A stretch of DNA of 6,002 nt from Candidatus Hydrogenedentes bacterium CG07_land_8_20_14_0_80_42_17 (lineage in GTDB: Bacteria; UBA8481): the NCBI GenBank assembly GCA_002780065.1, contig PEWQ01000097.1:1-6002 (forward strand). Reading direction: 5' to 3'. Position 1 is the first letter of the stretch, and each line of letters starts with the position of its first letter. Of the stretch, positions 339 through 4,997 are shown piece after piece. The translations under genes and the position numbers were made by a program. The notes under the pieces are model-generated. The model saw only the letters and a program-made list of their open reading frames with translations, had not been told where the DNA came from and did not search any database.

Positions 339-1958
339 TTACATTCTTAAAAATAGTTCTACTAAAATTTGAGCCATAACTATTTTAAAAATAAGAGCCG
401 CAGGATAAACGCTCGCGTAAGAGATAGTAGGTAAGCTCGTAACTGTCATTTGTTTCGATGCTGCAATGCCGGGCGGATTCGTCATGCATGCGGATAATGC
501 TCCAATCATGGCAAGAAAATTCATCTTCATAAAAGTATTCATCAGAATAATTGCTATTATCCATGCCGCAGCTGTTACTCCTATTCCGGCTAGAAGCAAT
601 TTGATTCCATAAGACTCGATAACTCCAATGAACTTGCCGCCGGCATTTGTTCCTACTCCGGCCAAAAAAAGCATGAGTCCCAATGAACGAGTTAAATTCT
701 TTGCCGCGGGAGGAACATATAATCTAAACCTCCCTATTTTTCCAAAATGCCCGATAATTAGACTCATTATGAAGACTCCGCCGGCAGATCCAAACCTCAG
801 ATCAATTCCACTGGGAAGATGAATTGGAATAGCTCCGGCAATTATTCCCATTACAAAACCCAAAAGATAAGGAAGCATATTCGTCTCTTCAGATTGCTTT
901 CTATCACTCTGCACCATCTTTGTAAAAAGTTCCGCCGAGCTTTTAGAACCGACAATTATTATCAAATCGCCAAGCTCGAGCGTAACTCTGCCTGTCGGAT
1001 TGATCTCGATTCCATATCGTTTTATTCGAGTCACAACGACGCCGTAAAGCTCCCAAACCTGCAATTCCGCCAGCTTTTTTCCTGCGACTTCAGTGGACGT
1101 CACTTCAGCGGCAATGCTGACTACATCGCCCATAGAGCTCGCCGGAGGCTGAGTTTCCTCACCGATAACCAATTTAGTTTTTTCCAATTCTTCTTGCGGC
1201 CCCACGGCAACAACTATATCGTTCAAATTGAAAACAAAATCCGGCGACGCCGCAAACATCTTTCCTGATCGGTATATTCGCGAAATAACTGCGCTCGATA
1301 AATGCCTCGACGTAATGTCGTGCATCTCTTTTCGATCAAGATTTTTGTTGGTCAATAAAAAATGAGCAACTTCCAAAGGAGGCGCATCCGTTCGCTGTTC
1401 AAGTTTCCATTTCTCTTCCTCTTTTCCAATATTTTTTCGTAAAAGCCGCGGCAAAAATTGGATAAGAATTACCGTTCCAATCATACTGAACGGATAACTG
1501 ACGCCGTAACCGACAGTGACGCTTTCAGGTGAGCCAAAGCCGGACCTTCCAATCGAATCCAATGTCGCCGCAAGCGCAGGAGTGCAAGTGAGAGATCCGT
1601 TAAACAATCCAATCGCTAAATCCAAAGGCAAAGAAAAAATTATAGCTACGAGTATTGTAGCAATCGCAGAACCTACGATTGTCATGAGCGCAATTGTTAG
1701 ATACTGAATTCCATGCTTCTTGAAAGTTCTGAAAAAACCCGGCGCTGCCTCAAGCCCCACAGCATAAACAAACAACAGCAAACCCAATTCAGTGACAACA
1801 CTCGGAATTCGCAAACCGAAATGCCCAAGCAGAAGGGCGACAAACAATACACCGGCGGGTCCAATCGATATTCCTCGGTACGCAATTTGTCCTACTGCCG
1901 TACCTATCGCCAAAATAGCGAAGAGAACGAGCATTTCTTGTGAGAGCAATTCCTTCAT
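339..1958 (-). CDS. AspT/YidE/YbjL-type transporter with two RCK_C domains
   Basis: Polytopic inner-membrane transporter of the aspartate:alanine exchanger superfamily; the substrate cannot be read from sequence. Numbering from the upstream ATG at 1976 (545 aa), two homologous membrane halves (about 13-180 and 366-545) flank two cytoplasmic RCK_C/TrkA_C domains (about 203-275 and 284-355), which in such proteins bind regulatory ligands. The internal duplication is visible: GPAGVLFVALLLGHFG (39-54) matches GSAGGVFIMSLIIGHFG (396-412), LGLLLFVYAVG (64-74) matches LGLMLFLAGVG (432-442), and GSLTCTPALAA (127-137) matches ALSACMTNPPGIAAS (493-507). Length and order fit the full family architecture. 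I chose the start at Met7 (1958, 539 aa) because a TATAAT lies 6 nt upstream of it, inside the longer reading. The gene is divergent from the tRNA-modification-like operon, so no functional link is implied. Family confidence is high; specificity is unknown. Confidence 0.93.
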   Translation of the reverse strand: MKELLSQEMLVLFAILAIGTAVGQIAYRGISIGPAGVLFVALLLGHFGLRIPSVVTELGLLLFVYAVGLEAAPGFFRTFKKHGIQYLTIALMTIVGSAIATILVAIIFSLPLDLAIGLFNGSLTCTPALAATLDSIGRSGFGSPESVTVGYGVSYPFSMIGTVILIQFLPRLLRKNIGKEEEKWKLEQRTDAPPLEVAHFLLTNKNLDRKEMHDITSRHLSSAVISRIYRSGKMFAASPDFVFNLNDIVVAVGPQEELEKTKLVIGEETQPPASSMGDVVSIAAEVTSTEVAGKKLAELQVWELYGVVVTRIKRYGIEINPTGRVTLELGDLIIIVGSKSSAELFTKMVQSDRKQSEETNMLPYLLGFVMGIIAGAIPIHLPSGIDLRFGSAGGVFIMSLIIGHFGKIGRFRLYVPPAAKNLTRSLGLMLFLAGVGTNAGGKFIGVIESYGIKLLLAGIGVTAAAWIIAIILMNTFMKMNFLAMIGALSACMTNPPGIAASKQMTVTSLPTISYASVYPAALIFKIVMAQILVELFLRM

Positions 1959-1964
1959 ACTGCA

Positions 1965-1994
1965 ATTATAATTCATTTTAAATTTACTTGTTAT
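1965..1994 (-). promoter_or_regulatory. Candidate promoter of the transporter gene, leaderless type
   Basis: On the minus strand a perfect TATAAT occupies 1970-1965, followed by 6 nt and ATG at 1958. A weak -35 match, ATAACA (1994-1989), lies 18 bp upstream. Transcription would begin at or next to the ATG, and no ribosome binding site is visible. The hexamer lies within the six codons that would be added by starting at 1976, which argues for the shorter protein. Confidence 0.5.
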
Positions 1995-2050: not shown

Positions 2051-2878
2051 ATGAGTTTAAAGTCTTTTGAAAAATTGCCGGTGGATTCACTCGAAATGCT
2101 TGATTGTTATAAACATTTATTAGAGCTTCCTCCTGTATCTCAATCATTGATTACAACTCTTTCGTCTGCTTTGAAAAAACTGTCAGTCGAAAATTACGCA
2201 CTGGCATTCTCAGGCGGGCTTGACAGCTCTCTGCTTCTCTACGCTTTTGTATCGCATTCAAAAAAAATTCCGCGGCTCTTCGTATTGACAACTCCTTCAC
2301 ACAATCGTGACCGCAGAGATGCGCATGAAGTTGCACAATCATTCGGCGCAAAGGTTGAAGAAGTAATAGTCGATCTGGGCACGATAATGAAAACGATTCA
2401 GGAGAACCAAGAGCTTCTCAAAAATCTGCCTGATTACACTCATCGAATTCTTGCAGTCTGCGAGATTCAAATGGCTAAATTCGCTTCTTCTCATGGCTTG
2501 AACTTAATCGTTGGTCACGGTCCTGAATCTATACTCGGAGGATTTGTCCGTCGAAAATTGCCGTCACTCAATGATTGGAATTCAATCGAAAAAACTCTTC
2601 TGCAAAATCTGGTTCGGCTCAACGCAATATCGAAAAAATATTCAATCGAAATATTTTTACCTTTCCTTGTTCCCGAAGTTTTTGCTTCACTTCTATCTCT
2701 TCAAAAAGATGGAATGGTCAAATCCGGATTATCGTCTCTCTTGCCAAACGGTACTCCTCTTCAAAGCAAAAAAGCTTCTTTGCAGAACGGCTCCGGAATC
2801 CATTATCTCTTTGAAAAAGCTATGGAAAAGAAAGGATTCAAAAGAACGCGGGATGCATTAGAGGACCTTCTGTCGTGA
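2051..2878 (+). CDS. Stand-alone asparagine-synthetase-like ATP-pyrophosphatase
   Basis: A 275-aa protein matching the synthetase (C-terminal) domain of asparagine synthetases, without the N-terminal glutaminase domain. The ATP-binding PP-loop SGGLDSS is at 54-60. VGHGPESILGGF (154-165) aligns with the family's GxGxDExFGGY, but the Asp-Glu pair is changed to Glu-Ser. LPFLVPEV (203-210) matches the PFLD-type motif with the Asp replaced by Val, and SKKASLQNGSGI (239-250) matches the KKAxQYGSG-type motif of archaeal-style members. The fold adenylates a carboxylate, which ammonia then converts to an amide. Altered acidic residues and the missing glutaminase suggest a substrate other than free aspartate. 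Only Cys19 and Cys137 are present, which makes a persulfide-type thiolase less likely but does not exclude it. Its stop overlaps the Elp3 start by 4 nt, so the two are probably translated together. Inferred role: amidation of an Elp3-derived carboxylate on tRNA. The fold is confident; the role is a hypothesis. Confidence 0.88.
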   Translation: MSLKSFEKLPVDSLEMLDCYKHLLELPPVSQSLITTLSSALKKLSVENYALAFSGGLDSSLLLYAFVSHSKKIPRLFVLTTPSHNRDRRDAHEVAQSFGAKVEEVIVDLGTIMKTIQENQELLKNLPDYTHRILAVCEIQMAKFASSHGLNLIVGHGPESILGGFVRRKLPSLNDWNSIEKTLLQNLVRLNAISKKYSIEIFLPFLVPEVFASLLSLQKDGMVKSGLSSLLPNGTPLQSKKASLQNGSGIHYLFEKAMEKKGFKRTRDALEDLLS

Positions 2879-4182
2879 GAAAAACCGCCGGCTTGACTCA
2901 TATCACAATATTCACCGAACCTGCGCCATGCGGCGGAAAATGCATTTATTGCCCATCAGTTCCCGAAATGCCAAAAAGTTATCTGCCTCATGCGGATATA
3001 AAAAAGTTTGGTCTGAATTATTCCTCGCGCGAGCAATTGAGATACTGGATTTCGAAAACAATCGATGATGGAATGGCGGCTAAAAAGATCGAGGTAATAA
3101 TTCTCGGAGGCTCTTTTTTAGCTCATTCACGGAATTATCGTCGTGAATTTATCAGAGGCATTTACGAAGCAATAGACGGTGATGCTCCGAACTCAACTGC
3201 GGAAGAAATCATCGAACGGCATTCGTCATCTGCTGAAAGACGAATTATCGGAATAACAATCGAAGCGCGGCCTGACCAGATCGATAAAGCTTCTCTCGAA
3301 GAAATATTCCGATTGGGAGTTACAAAAGTCGAGCTCGGAGTCCAGTCGCTCAACGATGAGATATTGGAATTTAATAAGCGAGGGCACTCGTCAAAAGATG
3401 TTGAGTCAGCTGTTGCAGTGATACGAGATTTCGGATTGAAAGTCGGGTTTCATCTGCTTCTAGGCATGCCAGGGTCGAATTTTGAAAAAGACATTGTTTC
3501 CTCTGAAAGAGCATTGAAAGACTCTCGTTTCAGACCCGACCATATTAAATTTTACTTTTGCGAAATGTTCAAAAAGGAGTTCATGGATCCCGAATTGAGA
3601 AAACTTTTCGAAGAAGGAAAGTGGAAGCCGCTCGATAAAAGAGAGCGTGAAGCTCTGCTGGAAGTCATCTTGCCGATGGTTCCTGAGAGCACAAGAATTT
3701 CTAGAATCGGCAGAAAATGTGCAGACAGTGAAGTGGAGGGCGAAAGATTTTTTATCGACCGAGGCAATGTTGAGCGAAAATTTAAATGCAGATGCATCAG
3801 ATGCCGCGAGCCTTTACCAAAATTTGAAACCGATATGAAGAGCGTAATCGTTGCCGATGAAAAATGGAGGGAGAACGAAGTTTATTTTGAAGCAAGGCCT
3901 GAAAGTGAGAATAGATGCCTAGGGCTCTTGCGCCTTCACATCAATTCGACAAGATCAATTGTCCGCGAACTGCACGTTTACGGAATCGAAACTCCGATAG
4001 GCGAGCACGGAATACATCAGCACAAAGGAATAGGAAAAATGCTTTTGAAAGCCGCAGAGGATTATTCCAAGCGATTCGGCTGTAAAATTATTTTTGTTGC
4101 CAGCGGCGTTGGAGTGAGAGAATACTACAGAAAGAAAGGATACATCTTAAATGAAGACGGATTCATGGAAAAGGAGCTGTAA
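2875..4182 (+). CDS. elp3: Elp3-type tRNA uridine-34 radical SAM/acetyltransferase, short form
   Basis: Elp3 uses acetyl-CoA and a radical SAM mechanism to build 5-carboxymethyluridine at the wobble position of tRNA. In this 435-aa protein the radical SAM domain comes first. Its cluster cysteines C19, C23 and C26 form CX3CX2C, followed by MPKSYLP (32-38), ILGGSF (76-81), ITIEARPDQ (127-135) and VELGVQSLNDEI (152-163). A cysteine cluster KCRCIRCRE (304-312) fits the zinc site between domains. The GNAT domain (about 325-435) has the acetyl-CoA motif QHKGIG (382-387) and GVREYYRKKGY (413-423). The protein starts almost at the radical SAM core, so the N-terminal extension of archaeal and eukaryotic Elp3 is absent. 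The frame upstream has no start codon and hits a stop at 2812-2814, so this is not a mis-called start. The GTG start overlaps the previous gene (GTGA) and has GAGG at 2861-2864. The CX3CX2C spacing differs from the longer spacing in archaeal/eukaryotic Elp3. Confidence 0.93.
   Translation: MRKTAGLTHITIFTEPAPCGGKCIYCPSVPEMPKSYLPHADIKKFGLNYSSREQLRYWISKTIDDGMAAKKIEVIILGGSFLAHSRNYRREFIRGIYEAIDGDAPNSTAEEIIERHSSSAERRIIGITIEARPDQIDKASLEEIFRLGVTKVELGVQSLNDEILEFNKRGHSSKDVESAVAVIRDFGLKVGFHLLLGMPGSNFEKDIVSSERALKDSRFRPDHIKFYFCEMFKKEFMDPELRKLFEEGKWKPLDKREREALLEVILPMVPESTRISRIGRKCADSEVEGERFFIDRGNVERKFKCRCIRCREPLPKFETDMKSVIVADEKWRENEVYFEARPESENRCLGLLRLHINSTRSIVRELHVYGIETPIGEHGIHQHKGIGKMLLKAAEDYSKRFGCKIIFVASGVGVREYYRKKGYILNEDGFMEKEL
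4171..4176 (+). promoter_or_regulatory. Ribosome binding site that decides a TTG start
   Basis: AAGGAG sits inside the last codons of the Elp3 gene, 8 nt before TTG at 4185. The next in-frame Met of the downstream protein is at residue 69, beyond its essential cysteines, so TTG is the only sensible start. This shows that the organism uses Shine-Dalgarno initiation inside operons. Confidence 0.8.
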
Positions 4183-4184
4183 TT

Positions 4185-4997
4185 TTGAGCGTTGATTTTT
4201 TTTCTCAGCCTGAAGAAAGAGAAGAATATAAAGGATTGAGGCGCTGGGGAATTTTTGCGGCAAATGTATTCGGCCCTGTTAAATCCCGCAGATTCGGAAG
4301 GTCGCTAGGAATCAATCCTCTTCCGATTGACGAAAAGGTCTGCAGTTTCGACTGCCCATACTGCGAGTGCGGAAGAACATTGAAAGAGATGAATGAATTG
4401 TTGAGAAGTTCATTTCCGCCCGTCGATAAACTGGAATCGGAACTTAGAAATGCTCTATCGCAATTAAAAAATGAGCTCCCGGATACTTTGACAATCACAG
4501 GCAATGGCGAGCCTACTCTCCATCCCAAATTTGAGCAAGTTGTCGAGATGACACTGCGATGCAGAGAAGAATTAACTCCTTCATCGAAAATTGCTATTTT
4601 AACTAACGGCACGACAATGGGTTCAGAACGTATTGCTGCGGCTTTGAATTCTGTGGACATTGTGATGTTGAAACTCGATGCAGGTTCCGAAGAGACTATG
4701 AATAAAATTAATGCGCCGCTCGTTTTTTGGACGCCTGAAAAGGTTAAAACTCTAGCCGGTAAACTTAATCGAATCATAATTCAGTCGATCTTTCTACAAG
4801 GCTCAGTGGACAACACATCGGAGAAAGAGATTCAGAGCTGGCTGAAATGCATCGCAGAGATAGGACCTCAATCAGTTGTCGTTTATACTCTGGACCGGGT
4901 TCCTCCAGCAATCGGGTTAAAGGCTGTTTCAAAAGATTTTCTTAAAACAATTTTGAAGCAAGTAAATTCGCTGGGAATAAATTGCGAGATAATTTAG
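4185..4997 (+). CDS. Radical SAM protein, COG0731 type
   Basis: A 270-aa radical SAM enzyme that binds a 4Fe-4S cluster through C53, C57 and C60 (CX3CX2C) in KVCSFDCPYCECGRT. The lead-in NVFGPVKSRRFGRSLGINPLP (residues 27-47) is characteristic of the COG0731 group, whose named members are tRNA wyosine-type enzymes, though many bacterial members lack an assigned reaction. ITGNGEPTLHP (104-114) is the GGEP-like SAM-binding motif. IQSIFLQG (199-206) and VVVYTLDRVPPAIGLKAVSK (231-250) match the family's C-terminal strand and tail. An additional cysteine, C62, follows the cluster motif. There is no SPASM or second cluster domain and no membrane segment. The gene starts two bases after the Elp3 stop, so co-transcription is very likely. 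A role in tRNA modification is inferred from family and context, not shown. Confidence 0.88.
   Translation: MSVDFFSQPEEREEYKGLRRWGIFAANVFGPVKSRRFGRSLGINPLPIDEKVCSFDCPYCECGRTLKEMNELLRSSFPPVDKLESELRNALSQLKNELPDTLTITGNGEPTLHPKFEQVVEMTLRCREELTPSSKIAILTNGTTMGSERIAAALNSVDIVMLKLDAGSEETMNKINAPLVFWTPEKVKTLAGKLNRIIIQSIFLQGSVDNTSEKEIQSWLKCIAEIGPQSVVVYTLDRVPPAIGLKAVSKDFLKTILKQVNSLGINCEII

What the first reader, a model, noticed from the sequence alone, without database searches (positions are those of the whole stretch)
2051..4182. Asparagine-synthetase-like enzyme coupled to Elp3: candidate for amidation of cm5U at the tRNA wobble position
Seen: a stand-alone carboxylate-amidating domain overlaps the Elp3 gene by 4 nt. 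Known: Elp3 yields cm5U, a carboxylate; the amide ncm5U exists in eukaryotic tRNA, and as far as I know no dedicated enzyme for that step is established; 5-cyanomethyluridine is reported in archaeal tRNA; PP-loop enzymes such as QueC turn a carboxylate into an amide and then a nitrile. Inferred: the pair makes cm5U and then ncm5U or a nitrile. Thiolation at position 2 is an alternative.
Basis: partly seen in the sequence, partly recalled or inferred. Interest (0 to 1): 0.72.

Follow-up and report, generated by a model that had tools for sequence, protein, structure and literature searches.

The report
Candidate enzyme amidating tRNA wobble uridine
In two related uncultured bacteria, a small asparagine-synthetase-like gene is locked to the gene for Elp3, which puts a carboxymethyl group on tRNA, exactly where other Elp3-bearing bacteria carry a methyltransferase of the type that caps that group, so it is a good candidate for the unidentified enzyme that turns the group into an amide.

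Summary
Window 2051-2878 encodes a 275-aa stand-alone asparagine-synthetase (AS) type PP-loop protein, here called AsnL. It overlaps the Elp3 gene (2875-4182) by 4 nt. The pair, with the same 4-nt overlap, recurs in a genome of another family of the same order, where all other neighbours differ. Elp3 keeps its radical-SAM, zinc and acetyl-CoA residues. Both genomes lack MnmE and MnmG, the usual bacterial U34 enzymes, but keep MnmA, so thiolation is already covered. Among 386 bacterial genomes, 9 have Elp3. Seven of these, and none of the other 377, carry a Trm9-like methyltransferase, next to Elp3 in six. The two without it are exactly the two with AsnL. The slot beside bacterial Elp3 thus holds an ester-former or, here, an amide-former. 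Predicted AsnL folds match AS-family synthetases over the whole domain, clearly better than LarE or tRNA thiolases. Most likely AsnL adenylates cm5U34 and lets ammonia form ncm5U34; a nitrile (cnm5U) is possible. The literature calls the ncm5U enzyme unknown in any organism. No activity has been shown, and the family is known only from one order of bacteria; archaea could not be searched.

The parts
2051..2878 (+). AsnL: stand-alone asparagine-synthetase-type PP-loop protein, 275 aa, proposed cm5U34 amidating (or nitrile-forming) enzyme
   Evidence: PF00733 35.3 bits over cut-off 21; AS-family fold matches (ortholog); ortholog in G001/RFFU01000032.1
2210..2230 (+). PP-loop (ATP pyrophosphatase) motif SGGLDSS, AsnL residues 54-60
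   Evidence: Translation; SGG.D invariant in the ortholog and in the three AsnB of the same genome
2513..2542 (+). GHGPESILGG, AsnL residues 155-164; equivalent of the AS motif SGEGxDExxGGY, with H156 at the position of E. coli AsnB Glu348 and E159 at the position of Asp351
   Evidence: Profile-profile alignment and multiple alignment; AsnB numbering and residue roles from general knowledge
2768..2797 (+). KKASLQNGSG, AsnL residues 240-249; proposed equivalent of the AsnB catalytic-lysine region (QKEQFSDGVG)
   Evidence: K241 and SLQNGSG invariant in both orthologs; the correspondence to AsnB is by inspection, and pairwise sequence comparison of this part is not significant
2875..2878 (+). GTGA: 4-nt overlap of the AsnL stop and the Elp3 start (likely translational coupling)
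   Evidence: Sequence; the same overlap as ATGA in G001
2875..4182 (+). Elp3 without the N-terminal extension, 435 aa, radical SAM plus GNAT domains; proposed to make cm5U34
   Evidence: TIGR01211 E 1.3e-88; PDB 5l7j E 6e-71; only Elp3 in the genome
2929..2952 (+). Radical-SAM cluster motif C19-G-G-K-C23-I-Y-C26 of Elp3
   Evidence: Translation; cysteines invariant in the ortholog
3787..3804 (+). Zinc-linker cysteines C305, C307, C310 of Elp3, typical of bacterial and archaeal Elp3
   Evidence: Invariant in the ortholog; aligned to Dehalococcoides Elp3; role from PMC6367351
3856..4143 (+). GNAT (acetyl-CoA) domain of Elp3, with E365, H367 and Y417 aligned to Dehalococcoides E386, H388 and Y441
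   Evidence: PF00583; alignment
4185..4997 (+). Third gene of the likely operon: radical-SAM protein of unknown role, starting 2 nt after the Elp3 stop
   Evidence: PF04055 E 2.2e-12; not next to Elp3 in G001

Best explanation
AsnL and Elp3 form a two-gene pathway for the wobble uridine of tRNA. Elp3 (radical SAM plus acetyl-CoA) makes 5-carboxymethyluridine (cm5U34). AsnL, an asparagine-synthetase-type synthetase domain without a glutaminase domain, binds ATP, adenylates the cm5U carboxylate, and lets ammonia displace AMP, giving 5-carbamoylmethyluridine (ncm5U34). The pathway stands in for the missing MnmE/MnmG pathway. In other Elp3-bearing bacteria the same carboxylate would instead be methyl-esterified by a Trm9-like methyltransferase. 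Shown: gene anatomy, recurrence, fold family, intact Elp3 residues, absence of MnmE/MnmG, presence of MnmA, and the AsnL-or-methyltransferase partition. Inferred: tRNA as substrate, amide as product, free ammonia as nitrogen source, ester formation by the methyltransferase.
For: The pair recurs with the same 4-nt overlap in another family while its flanks change. AsnL is found only in the two Elp3+ genomes that lack the methyltransferase. That methyltransferase occurs in 7 of 9 Elp3+ and 0 of 377 other genomes (Fisher p 1.5e-13, naive), sits next to Elp3 in six, and its best PDB matches are two carboxyl O-methyltransferases, juvenile hormone acid methyltransferase (E 1.2e-13) and Trm9 5cm2 (E 6.5e-12) (roles from general knowledge). 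No MnmG or full-length MnmE in G000 and G001, although 331 of 386 genomes have MnmG. MnmA present in both. AS-family fold for both orthologs; VIA Z up to 16.0 over 243 residues, against 10.6 for LarE and 9.7 for the thiolase NcsA. Elp3 catalytic residues conserved. Three full-length AsnB in the genome already cover asparagine. Literature: cm5U to ncm5U is enzymatic and its enzyme unknown (PMC3110198; PMC6412123).
Against: No biochemical data. AsnL is known from two genomes of one order only, so association statistics rest on few independent lineages. AsnB Glu348 is replaced by His156. The C-terminal catalytic-lysine assignment is not significant by sequence. AlphaFold models rest on two sequences and have modest confidence (pLDDT 56 and 65). 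The window genome is 87% complete, so absences there are weaker than in G001 (94%). ncm5U is not listed for bacteria in the review read. Archaea, where cnm5U occurs, could not be searched.
Confidence: 0.62

Rival explanations
1. AsnL goes one step further: it adenylates the amide again and eliminates AMP to give the nitrile 5-cyanomethyluridine (cnm5U34), as QueC does for preQ0 and the AS-like enzyme PesC does for a peptide C-terminus.
For: cnm5U and cnm5s2U exist in archaeal tRNA and the enzymes for cnm5U are called unknown. An AS-family enzyme making nitriles from carboxylates with ATP is now reported (PMC13060819). The nitrile synthetase ArtA is among the structural matches (Z 9.6).
Against: Features separating one-step amidation from two-step nitrilation are stated to be unclear. 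cnm5U is reported only from archaea. The best structural matches are amide- and lactam-forming enzymes.
Confidence: 0.17
2. AsnL thiolates position 2 of U34, like MnmA, TtuA or NcsA.
For: PP-loop fold; weak similarity to LarE, ThiI and TilS profiles; the thiolase NcsA aligns at Z 9.7.
Against: MnmA is present in both genomes. AsnL has only two cysteines (19, 137), of which one (C137) lies in a conserved stretch, and no CxxC pairs or three-cysteine cluster site. AS-family enzymes match far better and over the whole domain.
Confidence: 0.04
3. AsnL amidates or condenses a small metabolite or peptide, and its coupling to Elp3 is incidental to one order.
For: AS-family enzymes act on many carboxylates; only one order is known to carry the pair.
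Against: AsnL-Elp3 is the only part of the neighbourhood kept between families, with the same 4-nt overlap. The methyltransferase partition fits a tRNA carboxylate.
Confidence: 0.12
4. AsnL joins cm5U to an amine other than ammonia (for example an amino acid), giving a new hypermodified uridine.
For: The AS fold also forms lactams and other amides (beta-lactam synthetase is the best structural match). A His replaces the Glu that in AsnB lies near the ammonia site (role from general knowledge).
Against: No partner gene for an amine donor is conserved; this is speculation on two sequences.
Confidence: 0.05

Closest known systems
Asparagine synthetase B family (PF00733; E. coli AsnB, human ASNS, beta-lactam and carbapenam synthetases)
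   Same: SGGxDS PP-loop, GxGxExxxGGF/Y motif, AS-type synthetase fold over the whole domain
   Different: No N-terminal glutaminase domain; shorter synthetase domain; His for AsnB Glu348; distant in sequence; coupled to Elp3
Trm9 / ALKBH8 step (cm5U to mcm5U by methyl esterification)
   Same: Acts, by inference, on the same cm5U34 carboxylate made by Elp3; a Trm9-like gene occupies the same place in other bacterial genomes
   Different: AsnL is an ATP-dependent amide-former, not a methyltransferase; unrelated fold
PesC and QueC/ToyM (ATP-dependent nitrile-forming enzymes)
   Same: Carboxylate to amide to nitrile by adenylation; PesC is AS-like
   Different: PesC acts on a peptide and can use glutamine; QueC makes preQ0; neither is linked to Elp3
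Dehalococcoides mccartyi Elp3
   Same: Bacterial Elp3 lacking the basic N-terminal extension; same catalytic residues
   Different: The Elp3 here is overlapped by an AS-type gene and is clearly diverged in sequence

Membership tests
Asparagine synthetase family (PF00733) | Pfam profile match above gathering score | tested here: met
   35.3 bits against cut-off 21, profile positions 19-150 of 354
Asparagine synthetase family (PF00733) | SGGxDS PP-loop and the GxGxDExxGGY motif | tested here: met
   SGGLDSS conserved; motif present as GHGPESILGGF, with changes at the AsnB Glu348, Asp351 and Glu352 positions
Asparagine synthetase family (PF00733) | AS-type synthetase fold over the whole domain | tested here: met
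   VIA Z 16.0, 243 aligned residues, rmsd 4.0, to beta-lactam synthetase; 15.7 to human ASNS; models of modest confidence
Asparagine synthetase family (PF00733) | Catalytic lysine of the C-terminal part (AsnB K449) | tested here: inconclusive
   K241 invariant in both orthologs and fits by eye, but sequence alignment not above shuffles
Glutamine-hydrolysing asparagine synthetase (TIGR01536 equivalog) | Score above the equivalog cut-off and N-terminal Ntn glutaminase domain | tested here: not met
   34.8 bits against 267.1; no GATase domain
Elp3 (TIGR01211) | Radical-SAM cysteines and acetyl-CoA-pocket residues | tested here: met
   C19/C23/C26, K71, K189, E365, H367, Y417 aligned to Dehalococcoides Elp3 C23/C27/C30, K77, K193, E386, H388, Y441; R411 is Lys
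Elp3 (TIGR01211) | Score above the curated subfamily cut-off | tested here: not met
   297.8 bits against 350; profile positions 1-60 are absent, as in the short Dehalococcoides protein; matched over all the rest
Elp3 (TIGR01211) | cm5U-forming activity on tRNA U34 | not testable with these tools
   Needs biochemistry
tRNA 2-thiolases (MnmA, TtuA/NcsA, ThiI) | Catalytic or cluster-binding cysteines and zinc-finger CxxC pairs | tested here: not met
   Only C19 and C137 in AsnL; no CxxC
Trm9-like methyltransferase (neighbour of other bacterial Elp3) | Profile match to Trm9 and to carboxyl methyltransferases | tested here: inconclusive
   PDB 5cm2 (Trm9) second best, E 6.5e-12; best is juvenile hormone acid methyltransferase; activity untested
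ncm5U-forming enzyme | AsnL-dependent conversion of cm5U34 to ncm5U34 | not testable with these tools
   Needs LC-MS of tRNA nucleosides

The most novel reading that the evidence does not exclude
AsnL is a tRNA nitrile synthetase: with Elp3 it makes 5-cyanomethyluridine at the wobble position in a bacterium, in two ATP-dependent steps on one AS-type active site. This would be the first enzyme known for cnm5U and the first bacterial cnm5U, as far as the literature read here goes.
Probability: 0.17. Interest if true: 0.88.

Novelty: new variant of a known kind. Interest (0 to 1): 0.75.

Why it matters
The enzyme that turns cm5U into ncm5U is stated to be unknown in any organism, although ncm5U is a main wobble modification of eukaryotic tRNA and accumulates when Trm9 is missing (PMC6412123, PMC3110198). 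Yeast and human Elongator are six-subunit machines, so a two-protein bacterial system would make the question testable at the bench. It would also show that bacteria which lost MnmE/MnmG rebuilt wobble-uridine modification from Elp3 plus one carboxylate-tailoring enzyme, and that this enzyme was chosen differently (ester or amide) in different lineages.

Tried and rejected
Thiolation by AsnL: rejected on MnmA presence, missing cysteines and weaker fold match. AsnL as the cell's asparagine synthetase: unlikely, three full-length AsnB. Searches for further AsnL relatives in genome contigs, viral contigs and plasmids gave only G001 (RFFU01000032.1). Weak A1 matches in other genomes are to the N-terminal PP-loop part only; one read in full, L011, looks like an NAD synthetase (by inspection). 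The phylum of G149 holds only three genomes, so a wider Elp3 partner survey there was not possible. Pairwise alignment of the AsnL C-terminus with E. coli AsnB was not significant. Promoter and terminator scans gave nothing above chance. The downstream radical-SAM gene was considered as part of the pathway but is not next to Elp3 in G001. Literature searches for an ncm5U amidating enzyme, including AS-domain proteins such as ASNSD1, found none.

Full report
What is there. The + strand of the window holds a compact gene run that starts after the divergent transporter gene (339-1976, minus strand; Asp-Al_Ex and TrkA_C domains). AsnL (2051-2878) overlaps Elp3 (2875-4182) by the four bases GTGA, and a radical-SAM gene (4185-4997) follows 2 nt later. 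AsnL matches PF00733 above its gathering score over the first half of the profile and shows only weak similarity to other PP-loop families (NAD synthase, QueC, LarE, TilS). It is far below the equivalog cut-off for glutamine-hydrolysing asparagine synthetase and has no glutaminase domain.

It is conserved as a pair. In 41 and then 386 whole genomes sampled across bacteria, AsnL relatives that span the domain occur only in the window's genome (G000) and in G001, a different family of the same order. There AsnL (38% identical) and Elp3 (51% identical) again overlap by 4 nt (ATGA), but the flanks are different: a glycine-dehydrogenase-like gene upstream and an iron transporter (FeoB-like) downstream, both named by inspection. 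The unit that is kept is the pair. That pattern scan used only two short peptides, so distant relatives could have been missed.

Elp3 is intact but short. Aligned to Dehalococcoides Elp3 (PDB 5l7j, E 6e-71), the window protein keeps the three cluster cysteines, the zinc-linker cysteines, and residues equivalent to K77, K193, E386, H388 and Y441; K77, K193, E386 and Y441 are described as conserved acetyl-CoA-pocket residues (PMC6367351). R411 is Lys. Like Dehalococcoides Elp3 it lacks the basic N-terminal extension. The Elp3 proteins of the methyltransferase lineages have about 95-110 residues before the first cluster cysteine (measured from the first in-frame Met), while the AsnL-coupled ones have 18. 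It is the only Elp3 in the genome.

It replaces the usual bacterial pathway. MnmG and full-length MnmE are absent from G000 and G001; only unrelated GTPase-domain hits appear. They are also absent from the Elp3-bearing genomes G118, G255, G149 and G287, and present in the family-f32 genomes G031, G178 and G313. Overall 331 of 386 genomes have MnmG, against 3 of 9 Elp3-bearing ones (Fisher p 4e-4, naive). MnmA is present in both G000 and G001, so 2-thiolation has its own enzyme.

The partner slot. Six of the seven other Elp3-bearing genomes have a class I methyltransferase gene divergently next to Elp3; the seventh has it on another contig. A profile built from five of these (with the N-terminal motif NRxFYDxxAxxFSxSR) finds, as its two best solved structures, juvenile hormone acid methyltransferase and the tRNA methyltransferase Trm9 (5cm2), both makers of carboxyl methyl esters (roles from general knowledge). 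Across 386 genomes this methyltransferase occurs in exactly those seven and in none of the 377 genomes without Elp3; G000 and G001 lack it. So every Elp3-bearing genome among the 386 has one of two partners, never both. These nine genomes represent about four independent lineages, so the p-value overstates the evidence, but the partition is clean.

What AsnL is. Profile-profile comparison with the three AsnB of the same genome aligns SGGxD and the GxGxxE-GG motif (probability 92%, E 6e-7), placing His156 at the position of AsnB Glu348 and Glu159 at that of Asp351 (AsnB numbering from general knowledge). AlphaFold models of both orthologs (pLDDT 56 and 65, two-sequence alignments) match AS-family enzymes first and over nearly the whole length: Z 11.3 and 16.0, against 10.6 for LarE and 9.7 for NcsA in the better model. 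A conserved Lys241 in KKASLQNGSG fits the AsnB lysine region QKEQFSDGVG by eye, but this is not significant by sequence. Three full-length AsnB make a housekeeping asparagine role unlikely.

Mechanism proposed. Elp3 adds the carboxymethyl group to U34 (activity known for archaeal Elp3, from the literature). AsnL adenylates that carboxylate with ATP and ammonia displaces AMP to give ncm5U34. Only the gene-level facts are shown; substrate, product and nitrogen source are inferred. In yeast, ncm5U formation from cm5U was argued to be enzymatic, with the enzyme unidentified, and ncm5U accumulates when the Trm9 methyl-ester route is removed (PMC3110198; the authors also allow the reverse order, ncm5U before cm5U). 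That competition between ester and amide on one carboxylate is what the bacterial gene partition resembles. The enzyme is called unknown in any organism (PMC6412123). Nitrile formation remains open because an AS-like enzyme, PesC, makes nitriles from carboxylates (PMC13060819) and archaeal tRNA contains cnm5U from unknown enzymes (PMC7694415).

Limits. AsnL is known from two genomes only. Archaea could not be searched with the tools given. The window genome is 87% complete. Structure models rest on two sequences. The literature library is partial. An experiment is needed for any claim of activity.

Noticed in passing
G031, G178, G313, G118, G149, G287 (L033-L038); G255 on a separate contig: Bacterial Elp3 genes are divergently adjacent to a Trm9-like methyltransferase, with MnmE/MnmG missing in two of the three families. 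This suggests bacterial mcm5U; one review names only Dehalococcoides as a bacterial Elp3 carrier (PMC7663514).
   Followed up: partly
window 4185-4997: Radical-SAM protein (C53xxxC57xxC60, 'FGPVKSRRFGRSLGINPLP') directly behind Elp3, with an AAGGAG-like ribosome site before a TTG start; role unknown.
   Followed up: partly
window 2875-2930 and L030 5666-5800: The AsnL-coupled Elp3 proteins lack the N-terminal extension that the methyltransferase-linked bacterial Elp3 proteins have, while both AsnL proteins are basic (pI 9.05 and 9.65); AsnL might supply tRNA binding.
   Followed up: no
G000 contigs C150, C109, C137, C34 (L001-L004): Three full-length AsnB-type asparagine synthetases and one contig-edge fragment in a 2.4 Mb genome.
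   Followed up: no
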